A model generated the notes under the pieces. The model was not told where the DNA came from. It did no database searches and saw only the letters and a list, made by a program, of their open reading frames with translations. A DNA stretch of 64,000 nucleotides. It comes from Desulfonatronospira thiodismutans ASO3-1 (GTDB lineage Bacteria; Desulfobacterota; Desulfovibrionia; Desulfovibrionales; Desulfonatronovibrionaceae). The stretch covers positions 186,001 through 250,000 of the forward strand of contig NZ_ACJN02000004.1 in assembly GCF_000174435.1 (NCBI RefSeq). The letters run 5' to 3'. This document shows positions 8,159-54,732 of this stretch, one piece after another (the stretch's first letter is position 1; each line of letters starts with the position of its first letter). Both the position numbers and the translations under genes were made by a program.

Positions 8159-8340
8159 TCCTGGGGCGCAACTCATCTGGATGCCCCGCAGGTCCCAGAA
8201 AAATACCAGGATTGTACAGCCCTGAAATTCAATCCAGGGTTGCATTCAATACTTAACCGTACTACAATAGTAAATAATTCAGCAAGGTATTGTCACTACA
8301 GGAAAAGTTTAAGTTTGTTCAAAGGAGAGCGCCTCTCCTG

Positions 8341-8517
8341 GTAACCATTCAGGGGGTCCTCGGTGTTGATTACTGGCACAAGGCCTGGGGACTGTCCCTC
8401 GCTGTGTAGGTCTGTGCAGGATCACGGAATTTTGCGCTTGTAATTTTGGTGATCGTGAAGGCAAGGTGTCGCGGGGACTGTCCCCAGGCCGATTCCGGCA
8501 CCCCCCTGAATGGTTAC
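8341..8517. mobile_element. family B MITE-like element, copy B1
   Basis: A 177-bp non-coding element. The left end GTAACCATTCAGGGGG is repeated inverted at the right end (8501-8517). The flanks are CTCTCCTG (8333-8340) and CTTTCCTG (8518-8525), an 8-bp target duplication with one mismatch. Inside are inverted GGGGACTGTCCC-type arms (about 8388-8398 and 8473-8484), so the RNA or single strand could fold along most of its length. It encodes nothing recognisable. Confidence 0.8.
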
Positions 8518-8548
8518 CTTTCCTGGATGACTGAAACTGTAAGACTCA

Positions 8549-13509: not shown

Positions 13510-14056
13510 TATTCATCTTTTTGTCTCTTTGGGTCCAGACAAAAAAACCAGTACTGCAGCAAAACTTTGCCTGCAGCCCAGATGATCTGTTTTCAGCAAA
13601 AAAACATTTAACCATGAAGGACATGGAGATCATCAGCAGCTGCAAAACGGTTATGGAACAAGCAGGCTCACATGCTGAAAACTTTCTTGTGAGTTTTTGC
13701 ACGAATGTCTTGACAGATCAAGCCAGGAATGCTCTTTATGGAAACAGCTTATTGCTGCCTTGGTGGGACTGTCCCTTGACAGCCATTTGATGCAGGAAAG
13801 GTGACCATTCAGGGGGTTCCGCGGTGATGATTGCTTGCACCAGGCCGATTGAGGCATCCCCTGAATGGTTACCAGAAAACTCCCGGAGGTGATAAAAAGC
13901 GTACAGTTTGTGAAAGTTTATGCCCAGTGCCTTAGTTATGCTCAGCACACAGGCATACCTCCGTCTGCCTTGCTTTGATGGCTTTTCAGGGGACTTGGGA
14001 GCTTGAAACAGAGCTGATTGCTGCCAACATTGTTTTTTAAAGGAGGTGCGTATTTT
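13510..14056. other. 547-bp intergenic region before the redox operon
   Basis: No credible gene. It contains the family B copy B2 (13801-13872) and a lone GGGACTGTCCC-like motif near 13766. TTGACA occurs at 13710 and 13776, but neither has a good -10 partner. The strong AGGAGGTG ribosome binding site at 14041-14048 belongs to the next gene. Confidence 0.65.
13801..13872. mobile_element. family B MITE-like element, short copy B2
   Basis: A 72-bp copy with termini GTGACCATTCAGGGGG and inverted CCCCTGAATGGTTAC. It keeps both ends but has lost most of the interior seen in B1 and B3. Flanks are CAGGAAAG (13793-13800) and CAGAAAAC (13873-13880), 6 of 8 matching, consistent with an old duplication. 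It lies 185 bp upstream of the HmcB-like gene. Confidence 0.7.
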
Positions 14057-38295: not shown

Positions 38296-42456
<4,161 letters not shown>

Positions 42457-42528
42457 AATCCTGCCCTCTTATATGTAAAAAAGTGTTGTCTTTATTCTTG
42501 TCTGCTCTGCTCGGCGTCTGCGCGGCAT

Positions 42529-45500
42529 CTATTTCCTGGACTTCTTTTTTTCATCCAGCAGCAGATCCACGTCCAGCCCCAGGGCCATAAGTTCCTTAAT
42601 AAGTACGTTGAAGGACTCCGGCATTGCCGATTCCAGAAAATTGTTGCCCTTGACGATTTTCTCGTACATATTCACCCGTCCGGCAACATCGTCGGACTTC
42701 ACGGTGAGGAACTCCTGCAGAAGATAGGAAGCTCCGTAGGCCTCGATGGCCCACACCTCCATCTCGCCCAGACGCTGACCGCCGAACTGGGCTTTACCGC
42801 CAAGGGGCTGCTGGGTGACCAGGGAATACGGCCCAGTGGATCTGGCATGGATTTTCTCATCAACTAAGTGATGCAGCTTGAGCATATACATGTTGCCCAC
42901 TGTTATCCTGTTGTGAAAAGCATCCCCGGTACGTCCGTCGTACAGCACGGCCTTGCCGTCATCGCTCAGGCCTGCTTTCTTGAGCCAGGGCCAGATCTCT
43001 TCTTCCTTTGCCCCGTCGAATACCGGGGTCTTGGTAAGAATCCCGGGCTCCAGCTCCCGTACAGCCCTGACGAAACTTTCATCATCCATTTCTGCGGCCA
43101 GCCTGCTTATCTCAGGAGAGTTGAATATATCGTCCACTTCCTTTCTAAGGACCCCGACATCTACACCCTGCTCAAGCATCCTGCCCAGCTGCCTTCCCAG
43201 TTCCCGGGCCGCCCAGCCCAGGTGGGTCTCCATTATCTGGCCGATGTTCATCCGGGAGGGCACCCCCAGGGGACTAAGGACTATGTCAATGGGTGTTCCG
43301 TCATCAAAAAAGGGCATGTCCTCTTCAGGCAGAATGCAGGACACAACTCCCTTGTTGCCGTGCCTGCCGGCCATTTTATCGCCCACGTTGAGCTTTCTTT
43401 TGACCGCTACGTAGACCTTGACCATTTTGGTGACGCCGGGAGGCAGGTCGTCCCCCTCCACTACCTTGTCCCTCTTCTGAGAATAGACGTTCTGGATGAA
43501 TTTGAGCTGTTCTTCGTAAAGCTTAATCAGGTGCTCGATGGCCTCGTTCACTTCCTTGCTGGCAAATGATCCGGCAAGTTTTTTCAGAGGGATCCTGTCC
43601 AGGTCTTCTCTTTGCAGGGTGCTGTTGGCCTCTGCCAGGACCTGTCCCTTCTTGCGGCCCATGATGGTCTGGGCCAGCCTCTTTCCGGAAACCACTTCCC
43701 AGATCCTGTCCCTGGTTTGGGCGGTGAGGCCCTGGACATGCTTTTCCTCGCTCTGGGCAAGCCTGTCCAGCTCTCTGTCCTCGATTATCCTGGTACGCTC
43801 ATCCTTTTCGCCTGAGCGCCTGTTGAAGACCTTTATATCTATAACCGTACCCTCGATCCCGGGCGGAACCTTGAGGGAGGTGTTCTTGACGTCCCTGGCC
43901 TTGTCTCCGAATATGGCCCTGAGCAGACGCTCTTCCGGGGTAAGCTGGGTCTCCCCTTTGGGGGTGATTTTGCCCACCAGGATATCATCCTGCTGTATCT
44001 TGGCCCCGATCATGATGATCCCGCTGTCATCCAGGTACTTGAGCATGTCTTCGCCCACGTTGGGTATATCCCTGGTAATCTCCTCGGGTCCCAGCTTGGT
44101 ATCCCTGGCAATGACTTCAAACTCCTCTATGTGTACAGAAGAGAATACGTCATCCTTGACCATGCGCTCGGAAATGAGAATGGAGTCCTCAAAGTTGTAT
44201 CCACACCAGGGCATGAAGGCCACGGAAAGATTTTTGCCCAGGGCCAGTTCGCCGTCTACGATGCTGGGCCCGTCCGCCAGAACATCCCCGGCCTTGAACC
44301 TTTGATCGGGCAGCACCCTGGGCCTCTGGCCGAAGCAGCTGTTCTGGTTGGACTTGTGGTATTTCTGCAGATCATAGCAAACAGTGTCCTGGGAAGACTT
44401 GTCCGGGGGTTCATCATAGCTGACTATGACCTTATTGGCATCCACATAACGCACGATGCCGTCAGCCCTGGCAATCTCGCAACTGCCCGAATCCCTGGCC
44501 ACCAGTCCCTCCATTCCTGTTCCCACCAGTGGACGTTCCGGCTTTAAAAGAGGCACGGCCTGGCGCTGCATGTTGGAGCCCATCAGTGCCCTGTTGGCGT
44601 CATCATGCTCCAGGAAAGGTATCAGGGCCGAAGAAATGGACACGATCTGGGTGGGAGAAACATCCATCAGGGTAACCTCGTCCCGGGGCATGAGATTGAG
44701 TTCGCCGTGTATACGCGAAGTAATCAGTTCCGAGGTGAATCTGCCCTCCTCATCCACGGGTGCATTGGCCTGGGCAATGACTTCGTCTGCTTCCTTGGAT
44801 GCATCCAGGTATTTGACCTCATTGGTCACCATGCCGTCCTTTACAATGCGGTAAGGTGTTTCAATGAAGCCGAAGTCATTGACCTGGGCATGAGTGGTAA
44901 GGGATACGATCAGTCCAATATTGGGGCCTTCTGGTGTCTCAATGGGGCAGATGCGGCCATAGTGGCTGGGATGTACGTCGCGCACCTCGAAACCGGCCCT
45001 TTCCCGGGTCAGACCGCCCGGTCCCAGGGCTGAAAGCCTGCGCTTATGAGTCACCTCGGACAGCGGGTTGGTCTGATCCATAAACTGCGAAAGCTGCGAA
45101 GTGCCGAAAAACTCCTTGAGCACAGCTGTCACCGGCTTGGGATTAATAAGATCGTGGGGCATGAGAGTGGCTACTTCCTGCAGGCTCATACGCTCCTTCA
45201 CCGCTCTTTCCATGCGCACCAGTCCGATGCGGTACTGGTTTTCAACCAGTTCTCCCACCGGGCGTACCCTTCTGTTGCCCAGATGATCTATATCATCTGC
45301 AGGACCGTGAGAGTCCTTGAGCTTTATCAGGTGCTTCACCACCCTCAAAATATCCTCGTTGGAAAGGGTCCTGTAATCCGTGGGCAGATTGAGCCCCAGT
45401 CTGGCATTGAGTTTGTATCTCCCCACAGGGGAAAGATCGTAATAGTCCGAATTGCGAAACAGGTTGTCAAAAAAGCTGGATGCAATTTCAGGTGTGGGAG

Positions 45501-46620
45501 GAGAACTGGGACGAAGCCTTTTGTATATTTCCACCTGAGCTTCGAGTTGATCCTGTGTCTTGTCAAGCTTCAGGGTATCCCGCAGGGAGGATGAAACATC
45601 CTGACCCCCTGTGTAGAGGATTTCAACATCCTCGATACCCGACGCAAAGATTTTGTCCACGACGTCCTGTTCCAGCGCATCCCCCACCTCTGCCAGGACT
45701 TCCCCTGTTTCAGGGTGTACCAGGTCGTGGGCCACAAACTGCTTGGGCAGGATCCCTGGATCGATCTCCATATGTTCCTTGGCCTTGGCCATCTGCCTCC
45801 AGACTCTCTTGGTCACGGGGCGACCGGCCCTTACAAGGACATTGCCCTCACTGTCCAGGATGTCCTTGTAGGCTATCTCTTTCCTGAAATGCGAGGACCT
45901 GACTTTGCGATAGACTTTCTGGTCCTTGAATTTCAGCTGCTCACGGTCATAGAAGTAGTTCAGGATGTCCTCCTCGCTCATGCCCAGGGCCTTGAGCAGG
46001 ATGGTCACATACATTTTGCGGCGTCGGTCTATGCGCACGTATAAAATATCCTTGGGATCGAACTCAAAATCCAGCCATGAACCGCGCATGGGGATGATTC
46101 TGGAACTGTACAGGACCTTGCGGCTGGTATGCGTCTTGCCGGAGTCATGCTCGAAGATTATCCCCGGGGACCTCTGCAGCTGATTTACAATTATCCGCTC
46201 TGTACCGTTTATTATAAAAGTGCCCTTCTCCGTCATCAAAGGCAGGGTCCCGAAATAGATATCCTGCTCCTTGATATCGCGGACTGTGCGATTACCGCTT
46301 TCATCATCCACATCGTAGACTATGAGCCTGACCTTGATACGAATAGGGGCCTCATAGGTCAATCCTTTGGAGAGACACTCGGCCACGTCGTACTTGGGCT
46401 GATTGATTTCATAGCTTACATACTCCAGAGTGGCGGATTTGTTGAAATCCTCAATGGGAAAAACAGATCGAAACACCGCCTCCAGACCCTGGTCCTGGCG
46501 GTTCATGGGATCTGCTTCCTCCTGCAGGAAATTCATATAAGAATCCAGCTGGAGCTTTAAAAGATGCGGAACATCCAACCCGTATTCAATTTGACCAAAG
46601 TTCTTGGTAAATAGTCCCAT
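42529..46620 (-). CDS. rpoB: RNA polymerase beta subunit
   Basis: 1363 residues. The rifampicin-pocket segment ([32 protein letters not shown] lies within residues 509-540) has the residues of sensitive enzymes. The C-terminal [23 protein letters not shown]-type block is present with Ile in place of the usual Leu (VWAIEAYGA). Preceded by a 480-bp region from rplL. Confidence 0.99.
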
Positions 46621-50304: not shown

Positions 50305-50381
50305 TGGCAGGCCAGGAGGGACTCGAACCCCCAGCCCTCGGATTTGGAGTCCGATGCTCTGCCAATTCGAGCTACTGGCCT
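50305..50381 (-). tRNA. tRNA-Trp (CCA anticodon)
   Basis: 77 bases with an encoded 3' CCA. Acceptor stem AGGCCAG/CTGGCCT, anticodon stem TCGGA/TCCGA with loop CTCCAAA (anticodon CCA), and T arm GGGTTCGAGTCCC. Located between rpmG and secE, an arrangement seen in many bacteria. Confidence 0.97.
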
Positions 50382-50394
50382 GCATTATATTAAG

Positions 50395-50544
50395 CTACTT
50401 GCTTTCCTTGTGCGGCAGGTGTTTGCCGCAGAACGCGCAGAACTTTTTCAACTCCAGCTTGGAGGTTGTGTTCTTTTTGTTTTTGCAGGTAGCATAATTC
50501 CTTCGCTTGCACCCGCTGCATGAAAGCAGGATATTTACACGCAT
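50395..50544 (-). CDS. rpmG: 50S ribosomal protein L33
   Basis: 49 residues (MRVNILLSCSGCKRRNYAT...). Cysteine pairs CSGC and CAFC show the zinc-binding form. Start at 50544, four bases after tuf copy 2; ends at 50395, 13 bp before tRNA-Trp. Confidence 0.96.
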   Translation of the reverse strand: MRVNILLSCSGCKRRNYATCKNKKNTTSKLELKKFCAFCGKHLPHKESK

Positions 50545-50548
50545 ATCT

Positions 50549-51742
50549 TTACTCCACGATTTCCGAGACCACGCCTGCGCCCACGGTGCGTCCGCCCTCG
50601 CGGATGGCGAACCTCAGGCCCGGATCCATGGCTATCGGAACTATCAGATCCACATCAAAAGTCGTGTTGTCCCCGGGCATGACCATCTCCACTCCGTCCG
50701 GCAATGTCACTACACCGGTCACATCAGTGGTCCGGAAATAAAACTGCGGACGGTATCCGGAAAAAAACGGGGTATGACGACCACCCTCTTCCTTGTTCAA
50801 TATATACACCTCAGCCTTGAAACGACGGTGAGGCTTGATGGACTTGGGCGCTGCCAGAACCTGACCACGCTCAACATCATCACGCTTGATACCACGCAGA
50901 AGCACCCCAACGTTATCACCGGCCTGACCCTGATCCAGTACCTTGCGAAACATCTCCACACCAGTGCAGACAGTCTTGCGGGTATCAGTCATTCCGACTA
51001 TCTCCACCTCGTCGCCAACCTTGATGATGCCGCGCTCAACTCGGCCGGTAACAACTGTACCCCGACCGGATATGGAAAACACGTCCTCAATGGGCATAAG
51101 AAATGGCTTGTCAATGTCGCGCTTGGGCTCAGGAATAAAGTCATCGCAGGCCTGCACTATCTCCCAGATGCTCTTGGCATCCTCGGAGTCCGGATCATCA
51201 GTCTCCAGGGCCTTCAAGGCACTGCCGCGAACCACCGGAACATCATCACCGGGAAAATCATACTTGCTTAAAAGCTCGCGAACCTCCAGCTCCACCAGCT
51301 CCAGAAGCTCGGGATCATCAACCAGATCCACCTTGTTCAGATAAACAACTAAACTGGGCACTCCCACCTGGCGGGCCAGCAAAATATGCTCACGAGTCTG
51401 GGGCATGGGTCCGTCCGTAGCTGCCACAACCAGAACAGCTCCATCCATCTGAGCCGCACCAGTGATCATGTTCTTGATATAGTCAGCGTGACCGGGACAA
51501 TCCACATGGGCATAGTGACGATTGGGCGTCTCATACTCCACGTGAGCGGTTGCAATGGTAATGCCGCGCTCCTTCTCCTCAGGAGCCTTGTCTATCTTGT
51601 CAAACGCCACAAACTGACCACTGCCCTTCAAGCTAAGCACTTTGGTAATAGCTGCGGTCAATGTGGTCTTGCCATGGTCAATATGGCCTATGGTACCTAT
51701 ATTAACGTGCGGCTTCTTGCGGTCAAACTTAGACTTTCCCAT
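50549..51742 (-). CDS. tuf: elongation factor Tu, copy 2
   Basis: 397 residues, all GTPase motifs intact, differing from copy 1 at about 11 residues. The 24 bases upstream of its ATG are identical to those upstream of copy 1, where they include the end of fusA. This points to duplication or gene conversion from the str locus. It follows the four-tRNA cluster, as tufB does in E. coli. Confidence 0.99.
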
Positions 51743-52093
51743 CTCTTACTCCCCTTACTTGATTTTTAGTATTTTGCAGAGCGGTTGTAACCTTATAAAC
51801 CATCAGCCTGTAAAACAGACAGCCTGTGCTTGACGTCTGAAACACCCGGCAGATTGAGCCCGGATACAGCCTTTACCGTAACTGACGGAGAGCCTGTGGA
51901 AAATCTGCAGACCGACTGCTGATTTTCACGGCTTTCTTAACCGTCTTTATATCTGTTCAGCACTTCATGCAAAGCAGGGGGCAGCCCCGATATCACATTC
52001 ATAGCGCTGACAGATACCTGTCTTTTAAATTTTGTTGCGCCTCTGGGACATCTGTCAGCAAAAAAGCCGGAAGACAGAAATTTGCTGCTGGGA
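51743..52093 (-). other. 351-bp region between tRNA-Thr(GGT) and tuf
   Basis: Contains the short family A copy A3 (51949-52017) and, next to tuf, a 24-bp stretch shared with the fusA-tuf junction. No gene and no clear terminator; tuf is probably transcribed with the tRNAs. Confidence 0.6.
51949..52017. mobile_element. family A MITE-like element, short copy A3
   Basis: 69 bp, ends ATATCTGTTCAGCACTT and inverted AGCGCTGACAGATAC; the inner part is deleted relative to A1 and A2. Flanks CCGTCTTT (51941-51948) and CTGTCTTT (52018-52025) are an 8-bp duplication with one mismatch. Confidence 0.78.
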
Positions 52094-52169
<76 letters not shown>

Positions 52170-52191
52170 CTGTATATGACATGCACACAAG

Positions 52192-52268
52192 TGGAGCGGG
52201 AAACGGGACTCGAACCCGCAACCCTCAGCTTGGAAGGCTGATGCTCTAGCCAATTGAGCTATTCCCGC
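52192..52268 (-). tRNA. tRNA-Gly (TCC anticodon)
   Basis: 77 bases with encoded CCA. Acceptor GCGGGAA/TTCCCGC, anticodon stem TCAGC/GCTGA with loop CTTCCAA. Equivalent of E. coli glyT. Confidence 0.96.
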
Positions 52269-52380
52269 CAGTCTTGTAGTCCAGCAACAGGTCTGTCCTG
52301 TCTCCTACAATAAAAAGGCCCGATTCAGTTGACTCCCGGCACAGTCCGGGCGTATATTTAAATCTGATCTTTTGTTTAAG

Positions 52381-52466
52381 TGGTGGAGGGAGGAGGATTC
52401 GAACCTCCGAAGGCTTACGCCGACAGATTTACAGTCTGTTCCCTTTGGCCACTTGGGTATCCCTCC
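52381..52466 (-). tRNA. tRNA-Tyr (GTA anticodon)
   Basis: 86 bases with encoded CCA and a long variable arm, as in bacterial tRNA-Tyr. Acceptor GGAGGGA/TCCCTCC, anticodon stem ACAGA/TCTGT with loop CTGTAAA. Equivalent of tyrU. Confidence 0.97.
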
Positions 52467-52469
52467 GTG

Positions 52470-52545
52470 TGGAGCTGGCGATGGGACTTGAACCCGCAAC
52501 CTGCTGATTACAAGTCAGCTGCTCTACCAATTGAGCTACGCCAGC
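52470..52545 (-). tRNA. tRNA-Thr (TGT anticodon)
   Basis: 76 bases with encoded CCA. Acceptor GCTGGCG/CGCCAGC, anticodon stem GCTGA/TCAGC with loop CTTGTAA. First gene of the cluster, three bases before tRNA-Tyr. Confidence 0.97.
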
Positions 52546-54338: not shown

Positions 54339-54367
54339 TTTCTACACCACCGGACAGCAGTTTAATC

Positions 54368-54540
54368 GTAACCATTCAGGGGGCAGAGACCGGCCAGGGG
54401 GACAGTCCCCGCGACACTTTTACTGCCAATATGAAAAGTACAGACGCAAAATTTTGTGAAGCTTCATAATCATAACTTAGCGGGGGCAGTCCCCTGGCCT
54501 TGTGCCATCAGCCACCAACGAGGTCCCCCTGAATGGTTAC
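54368..54540. mobile_element. family B MITE-like element, copy B3
   Basis: 173 bp with ends GTAACCATTCAGGGGG and inverted CCCCCTGAATGGTTAC. Flanks GTTTAATC (54360-54367) and GATTAATC (54541-54548) form an 8-bp duplication with one mismatch. Inner arms GGGGGACAGTCCCC and GGGGGCAGTCCCC lie near each end, around an A/T-rich centre. Inserted between pcm and its likely promoter. Confidence 0.85.
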
Positions 54541-54732
54541 GATTAATCAGTTTCGCACTACCTGCAACCAGAAAACCGCGGGAACCAGGTCTGTCTTCAT
54601 AAAAAGTTTTTCAACCTCTGTCCATTTATAATTTCTGGATACCTGGCAGGCAGATGCGTGTCCCCTGAAACAACCGCCTGAAACAACTGATTCATACGGT
54701 TCAAGAGGACTGTCCCAGGCCCGAGAGATTGT

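What the first reader, a model, noticed from the sequence alone, without database searches (positions are those of the whole stretch)
8341..8517. Family B: a second set of MITE-like elements with GTAA ends and 8-bp duplications
Three copies (8341-8517, 13801-13872, 54368-54540) share ends GTAACCATTCAGGGG. Flanking octamers match 7/8, 6/8 and 7/8. The 5'-GTAA tips and 8-bp duplications are also traits of IS66-family elements, so a link to an IS66-like transposase is possible, but the inner end sequence is not one I recognise.
Basis: partly seen in the sequence, partly recalled or inferred. Interest (0 to 1): 0.6.

Follow-up and report, generated by a model that had tools for sequence, protein, structure and literature searches.

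The report
IS66-type miniature transposons in Desulfonatronospira
The window holds three of roughly a hundred or more copies of a small non-coding jumping-gene remnant whose ends and 8-base target duplications match a known transposon group (IS66 family, ISBst12-type), although no helper transposase with those ends was found in this genome; it is a sound but fairly ordinary find.

Summary
Three elements at 8341-8517, 13801-13872 and 54368-54540 share inverted ends GTAACCATTCAGGGG and lie between imperfect 8-bp repeats. The window's genome (4.1 Mb; placed in Desulfonatronospira through a same-genus record) holds 211 exact copies of a 14-base end and none of the reversed control. Of 83 elements resolved in this genome, 45 have perfect 8-bp target duplications and 60 match at 7 or 8 of 8. 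Pooled over 92 elements, flank identity is 80% at offset 8 and 25-33% elsewhere. A sister genome keeps the empty site of the second element, with one octamer.

The ends match autonomous IS66-family elements of the ISBst12 type (single tnpC, no tnpA/tnpB). Eleven such elements measured here have perfect 8-bp duplications and GTAAC-type ends (one GTTAC); ISGst1 is GTAACTATTCAG, 11 of 12 bases identical to the family-B tip. A TnpC element with that end occurs in the same order. The IS66 elements resident in this genome have other ends (GTAAGCGTCC; GTGTACTTTC), so no parent was found.

Best reading: an orphan, non-autonomous MITE family once moved by an ISBst12-type TnpC. New member of a known kind. 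Whether the palindromic cassettes inside do anything is open.

The parts
8341..8517 (+). Family-B MITE copy 1, 177 bp, no coding capacity; terminal inverted repeats 8341-8356 / 8502-8517, inner palindrome GGGACTGTCCC at 8388-8398 and 8474-8484
8333..8340 (.). left target-site octamer CTCTCCTG of copy 1 (partner CTTTCCTG at 8518-8525, 7/8)
8518..8525 (.). right target-site octamer CTTTCCTG of copy 1
13801..13872 (+). Family-B MITE copy 2, 72 bp short form lacking the inner hairpin; left tip GTGACC (one mismatch)
   Evidence: empty site in G004
13793..13800 (.). left target-site octamer CAGGAAAG of copy 2 (partner CAGAAAAC, 6/8; single CAGGATAT in G004)
13873..13880 (.). right target-site octamer CAGAAAAC of copy 2
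54368..54540 (-). Family-B MITE copy 3, 173 bp, inserted in the opposite orientation relative to copy 1 (73% identical to copy 1 when reverse-complemented)
54360..54367 (.). left target-site octamer GTTTAATC of copy 3 (partner GATTAATC, 7/8)
54541..54548 (.). right target-site octamer GATTAATC of copy 3

Best explanation
These are non-autonomous MITEs of the IS66 family, most likely of the ISBst12 (solo-tnpC) subgroup. An IS66-type TnpC transposase supplied in trans recognised the GTAACCATTCAGG ends and inserted the element with an 8-bp staggered cut, giving 8-bp duplications. Shown: the ends, the 8-bp duplications, the copy number, an empty site, nested insertions, and that autonomous ISBst12-type elements have nearly the same ends and the same duplication length. 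Inferred: that an ISBst12-type TnpC moved them, that the source is now absent from (or undetected in) this genome, and the chemistry (excision or copying) of the movement.
For: 211 exact 14-bp ends in the genome, 0 in control. 83 elements resolved in this genome, 45 with a perfect 8-bp duplication; offset-8 specificity. Empty site in a sister genome; nested insertion L052:12394-12730 with duplication GCTGAATG. Largely intergenic sites: 14 of 79 empty sites fall in an ORF of 150 aa or more against 49% of random positions in the same flanks. End match: ISGst1 GTAACTATTCAG (duplication AAAAGAAC), Paraburkholderia GTAACTATTCAG (GCCGCCGC), Anoxybacillus GTAACTATTCAG / GTATCCATTCAG (CTAACGAC), Leptolyngbya and Segatella GTAACTACTCAG, Deinococcus GTAACTGCTCAG, all perfect 8-bp duplications. 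In the same bacterial order, an IS66 TnpC gene lies between GTAACTATTCAG and GTAACTATTCAC ends, 1,727 bp. The MITE tip scores 15.6 bits on a profile of 13 such elements; 0.05% of random GTAA-starting 12-mers do as well; the resident IS66 type A tip scores 4.8. MITE ends themselves vary C/T at position 6, and the longer forms have a GTAACTCTTCAG right end. PMC12898284 reports ISDge4 (ISBst12 group) transposing with ends GTGACTACTCAGCA/GTAACTGCTCAGCA and an 8-bp direct repeat.
Against: No autonomous element with GTAACCATTCAGG ends was found. The IS66 model search of the own genome found only type A (ends GTAAGCGTCC) and type B (ends GTGTACTTTC), and none with these ends in six further genomes of the genus. 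The interior shows no similarity to any IS66 element examined. The end match rests on about 12 bp. The Desulfovibrionales TnpC element L267 lacks a preserved duplication (4/8) and its gene is split. Bases 13-16 of the MITE tip (GGGG) are not shared as a block by the relatives measured.
Confidence: 0.84

Rival explanations
1. The MITEs are moved by one of the IS66 elements that live in the same genome now (type A, nine near-identical copies), through cross-recognition of partly similar ends.
For: Type A also begins GTAA and makes perfect 8-bp duplications; it is present in nine copies, so was probably active recently; it shares several positions (GTAA-C-T-CA) with the MITE tip.
Against: Outside GTAA the tips differ (GTAAGCGTCCAT against GTAACCATTCAG; profile score 4.8 against 15.6). 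The sister genome G004 is also full of these MITEs (171 exact ends) but has no type A hit, though it is a fragmented MAG in which repeated elements can be missing.
Confidence: 0.08
2. The parent belongs to a different DDE family whose ends happen to begin GTAAC and which also makes 8-bp duplications.
For: No parent was found; several IS families make 8-bp duplications (general knowledge).
Against: The agreement extends over 11 of 12 bases with a group that has the same duplication length; other families with 8-bp duplications have other tips (general knowledge of IS families).
Confidence: 0.06
3. They are not transposed at all but are REP/terminator-like palindromic repeats spread by recombination.
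For: Strong hairpins (z -6.5 and -5.8), intergenic positions, palindromic interiors.
Against: Precise 8-bp duplications specific to offset 8 and an empty site with one octamer are the mark of transposition.
Confidence: 0.02

Closest known systems
ISBst12 subgroup of the IS66 family (ISGst1, ISDge4 and relatives)
   Same: Tips GTAAC(T)(A/G)(T/C)(T/C)CAG, 8-bp target duplications (PMC12898284)
   Different: Those are about 1.45-1.8 kb and code for TnpC; the MITEs are 59-620 bp without a transposase, have C at position 6 of the tip and a GGGG extension, and an unrelated interior
Classic IS66 unit, resident type A in this genome
   Same: GTAA tip, 8-bp duplication
   Different: Inner tip GTAAGCGTCC; carries a transposase gene; 2.48 kb
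IS66-like TnpC + DruA transposon of Desulfonatronospira sp. CSSed11_143 (L178/L241)
   Same: Same genus; tip GTAACTTCTCA; perfect 8-bp duplication CAAAAACA
   Different: 2.6 kb with two genes; tip differs at the inner bases; inserted inside another small element with GTAACAGTTTAGCCC ends
Bacterial MITEs such as MITEPsy1 (PMC3189936) and MITEAba12 (PMC6382973)
   Same: Short, non-autonomous, inverted ends, target duplications, helper transposase in trans
   Different: MITEPsy1 has other ends and a 4-bp duplication and is tentatively tied to IS5; MITEAba12 was seen only as an abstract and was not compared

Membership tests
MITE (non-autonomous DNA transposon) | short, no transposase gene | tested here: met
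   59-620 bp in 92 resolved elements; the window copies lie between the predicted genes
MITE (non-autonomous DNA transposon) | terminal inverted repeats in many copies | tested here: met
   about 16 well conserved bp at each end; 211 exact 14-mers
MITE (non-autonomous DNA transposon) | target-site duplication of fixed length and empty sites | tested here: met
   8 bp; empty site
MITE (non-autonomous DNA transposon) | an autonomous partner sharing the ends | tested here: inconclusive
   none with identical ends; near-identical ends on ISBst12-type elements in other genomes
IS66 family | tip GTAA and 8-bp target duplication | tested here: met
IS66 family | encodes TnpC (DDE_Tnp_IS66) | tested here: not met
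   the MITEs are too short to code for it, so they are filed only as IS66-related non-autonomous elements
IS66 family, ISBst12 subgroup | subgroup-type inner tip (GTAACTATTCAG and variants) | tested here: met
   11/12 to ISGst1 and others; profile score 15.6
IS66 family, ISBst12 subgroup | mobilised by a solo TnpC | not testable with these tools
   needs a transposition assay
Resident IS66 elements as parent | resident IS66 element with the same ends | tested here: not met
   types A and B have other ends

The most novel reading that the evidence does not exclude
The family is a modular carrier: fixed ISBst12-type ends around an interior in which different palindromic cassettes (GGGGACTGTCCC-bounded hairpins, GCGGCAAAGCCGC/GCAACGAAGTTGC arrays, or, in another family of the order, CGTCATTGCGAG and CACCGCAGAGACGC repeats) are exchanged or accumulated, so that the MITEs spread other repeat families or regulatory hairpins through the genome.
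Probability: 0.2. Interest if true: 0.5.

Novelty: new member of a known kind. Interest (0 to 1): 0.3.

Why it matters
It adds a high-copy MITE family to a group for which the literature search here found none (IS66/ISBst12 type). It is an example of MITEs living apart from a recognisable parent. It also gives a tip motif by which short intergenic repeats in other genomes can be assigned to the ISBst12 subgroup. The modular palindromic interior is the part worth further study.

Tried and rejected
Parent among resident IS66 elements: rejected, ends differ. Parent as a TnpC+DruA transposon like L178: own genome has no close homologue of that TnpC; tips differ. Parent among other DruA-carrying transposons of the genome (C1:1003757, C2:390871, C1:47373 groups): no GTAACCATTCAG ends found on them. 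Large elements (up to 9 kb) with these ends and exact duplications in the stretches fetched: none, apart from artefact pairings across repeated loci on contig C1. Class and phylum scans for the 15- or 14-base end: essentially confined to the genus, plus two genomes of one other family of the order and single hits of the kind chance gives. TnpC relatives and MITE-like pairs in viral contigs: none. Literature on IS66-derived MITEs: nothing found in the library held; of the main IS66 papers, Han 2001 is not held and Gourbeyre 2010 was not attempted. Interior homology with IS66 elements: none beyond chance-level hits.

Full report
Observation. The three elements and their octamers are in the window as described. 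They are not chance: the genome in which the window lies (G000, 4.107 Mb in 5 contigs; window = C4:186001-250000) holds 107 forward and 104 reverse exact TAACCATTCAGGGG and none of the reversed control. A same-genus genome (G004) has 171 exact copies of the 15-base end; other members of the genus have 0-8. G004 corresponds to a record titled Desulfonatronospira sp. CSSed11_143 (same position and an identical 539-aa TnpC), which places the window in Desulfonatronospira, Desulfovibrionales; the species was not established.

Anatomy. 92 distinct elements with mutually nearest ends were resolved, 83 of them from the window's genome and the rest from relatives. Lengths fall into classes: 59-76 bp, 90-91 bp, 154-202 bp (the main class, mostly 172-179), and 248-618 bp. 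At offset 8 the flanks agree at 79.5% of positions, with 46 perfect octamers; at offsets 4-7 and 9-12 agreement is 25-33%. 65 pairs agree at 7 or 8 of 8, against a mean of 0.9 and a maximum of 6 in 1000 shuffles of the right flanks. The first 15 bases are highly conserved; the main variation is at position 6 (C 172, T 12), position 7 (A 164, C 20) and position 12 (G 172, A 10). Longer elements have unequal ends: GTAACCATTCAGGGGGTGCCAGCAATC on one side and GTAAC(T/C)CTTCAGGGGGGAGATATGCC on the other. Nested copies occur (L052:12394-12730). The empty site of the window's second copy is present in G004: TTTGATG-CAGGATAT-TCCGGGG, against TTTGATG-CAGGAAAG-[element]-CAGAAAAC-TCCCGGAG in the window. 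Most copies lie between genes (14 of 79 in an ORF of 150 aa or more against 49% of random positions in the same flanks). The ends and interior fold into strong hairpins.

Which transposase? The own genome's IS66 elements are type A (nine copies, ends GTAAGCGTCCATTTAA / GTAAGCGTCCAAACGG, 8-bp duplications) and type B (five copies plus a broken one, with DruA as an extra gene, ends GTGTACTTTCGGC / GTGTCTTTCCGGC, 8-bp duplication AAAAAACC in L047); neither has the family-B end. In relatives, G004 carries a divergent TnpC + DruA transposon with ends GTAACTTCTCAATAGTTCTGGG and the perfect duplication CAAAAACA. A TnpC element in another family of the order (G049, locus L267) is bounded by GTAACTATTCAG and GTAACTATTCAC, 1,727 bp, though with a split gene and no preserved duplication.

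Using the L267 TnpC as query, 155 plasmid records hold relatives. Fifteen loci from the top of that list and eight from further down were opened and their ends determined from inverted repeat plus duplication. Thirteen gave perfect 8-bp duplications: ISGst1 GTAACTATTCAG (AAAAGAAC), Anoxybacillus GTAACTATTCAG / GTATCCATTCAG (CTAACGAC), Paraburkholderia GTAACTATTCAG (GCCGCCGC), Leptolyngbya GTAACTACTCAG (ATCAGCGG), Planococcus GTAACTACTTAG (TTGAAAAG), Segatella GTAACTACTCAG (GAAGCGTT), Bradyrhizobium GTAACTGCCCAG (CCGAACCG), Deinococcus wulumuqiensis GTAACTGCTCAG (GCCGCTTG), Chlorohelix GTAACAAATCAG / GTAACAGTTCAG (GAATCATT), Acaryochloris GTTACTGCCCAG (CTTCATTC), Octadecabacter GTAACTCCCAAG (TGTTTTTA), and the more distant ISKpn15 GTAAGTATTCAC / GTATCTATTCAC (GGCTGCAT) and ISH10 GTACGTGTTTAG / GTACGTGTTTAC (CCGATCTA). 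For the others no duplication was recovered; Oceanisphaera still has GTAACTATTCAG at both ends. ISDge4, described as an ISBst12-group element, transposed with ends GTGACTACTCAGCA and GTAACTGCTCAGCA and an 8-bp direct repeat (PMC12898284). Against a profile of the 13 measured elements the family-B tip scores 15.6 bits, reached by 0.05% of random GTAA-starting 12-mers; the resident type A tip scores 4.8. Family-B ends are therefore ISBst12-type IS66 ends. The step from 'same ends' to 'moved by such a TnpC' is inference from the general rule that a transposase recognises its own tips.

Absence of a parent. The Pfam IS66 model, which found L267 at 153 bits, finds only types A and B in the own genome, one divergent element in G004 and one in G005, and nothing in the other genomes of the genus; no larger element with family-B ends and an exact duplication exists in the stretches fetched, except pairings across repeated loci at the start of contig C1. 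Contigs C2-C5 were sampled, not read throughout. So the MITEs look orphaned here, but a parent elsewhere, in an unsampled stretch or in unsequenced strains cannot be excluded.

Distribution. Exact ends are confined to the genus and two genomes of one other family of the order (G054, G059); other hits in 348 class genomes and 395 phylum genomes are single and of the kind expected by chance. The G054 element (583 bp, octamers 7/8) has the same ends but a different interior made of other repeats. G054 also has an IS66-like gene in two truncated contigs whose shared sequence stops at an end reading GTATGAGTTTAGCCC.

Verdict. Real, mobile in the recent past, IS66-related; a new, high-copy member of a known kind. 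What the interior palindromes do is not known.

Noticed in passing
L178 315-2936 (G004:C430; also L241, L242): IS66-like transposon with a divergent TnpC (539 aa) and a DruA (PF14236) gene, ends GTAACTTCTCAATAGTTCTGGG, perfect 8-bp duplication CAAAAACA, inserted inside another small element with GTAACAGTTTAGCCC ends; a TnpC reported as 100% identical is in a Desulfonatronovibrio MAG.
   Followed up: partly
G000 C1:1184500-1190500 (L047) and five other places: IS66 type B elements carry a DruA gene next to tnpC; DruA genes also accompany other transposon-like repeats in this genome (15 DruA matches in all).
   Followed up: partly
G000 C1:1177900-1180700 (L170 5420-8230) and the 297-618 bp MITEs: Arrays of very short palindromes (GCGGCAAAGCCGC, GCAACGAAGTTGC, GAAGCCTTCAGGCTTC, CACGCCCCTGGCGTG), in places apparently nested inside one another.
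   Followed up: no
window 13765-13775: A free-standing GGGACTGTCCC palindrome next to MITE copy 2; the same palindrome bounds the inner hairpin of copies 1 and 3. Four in the window against 0.05 expected. In the G004 ortholog it reads GGGACTGTACC.
   Followed up: partly
G000 C1:2245-2814, C1:6349-6930, C3:1101315-1101932: The same long MITE with duplication GAGCTGCG in three places, as expected of an insertion that predates duplication of its surroundings.
   Followed up: no
L179 63-645 (G054): A 583-bp element of another bacterial family with family-B ends but filled with CGTCATTGCGAG- and CACCGCAGAGACGC-type repeats.
   Followed up: partly
window 50305-52545: tRNA genes Trp, Thr, Gly, Tyr, Thr a few kb beyond rpoB/rpoC (38296-46620).
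   Followed up: no
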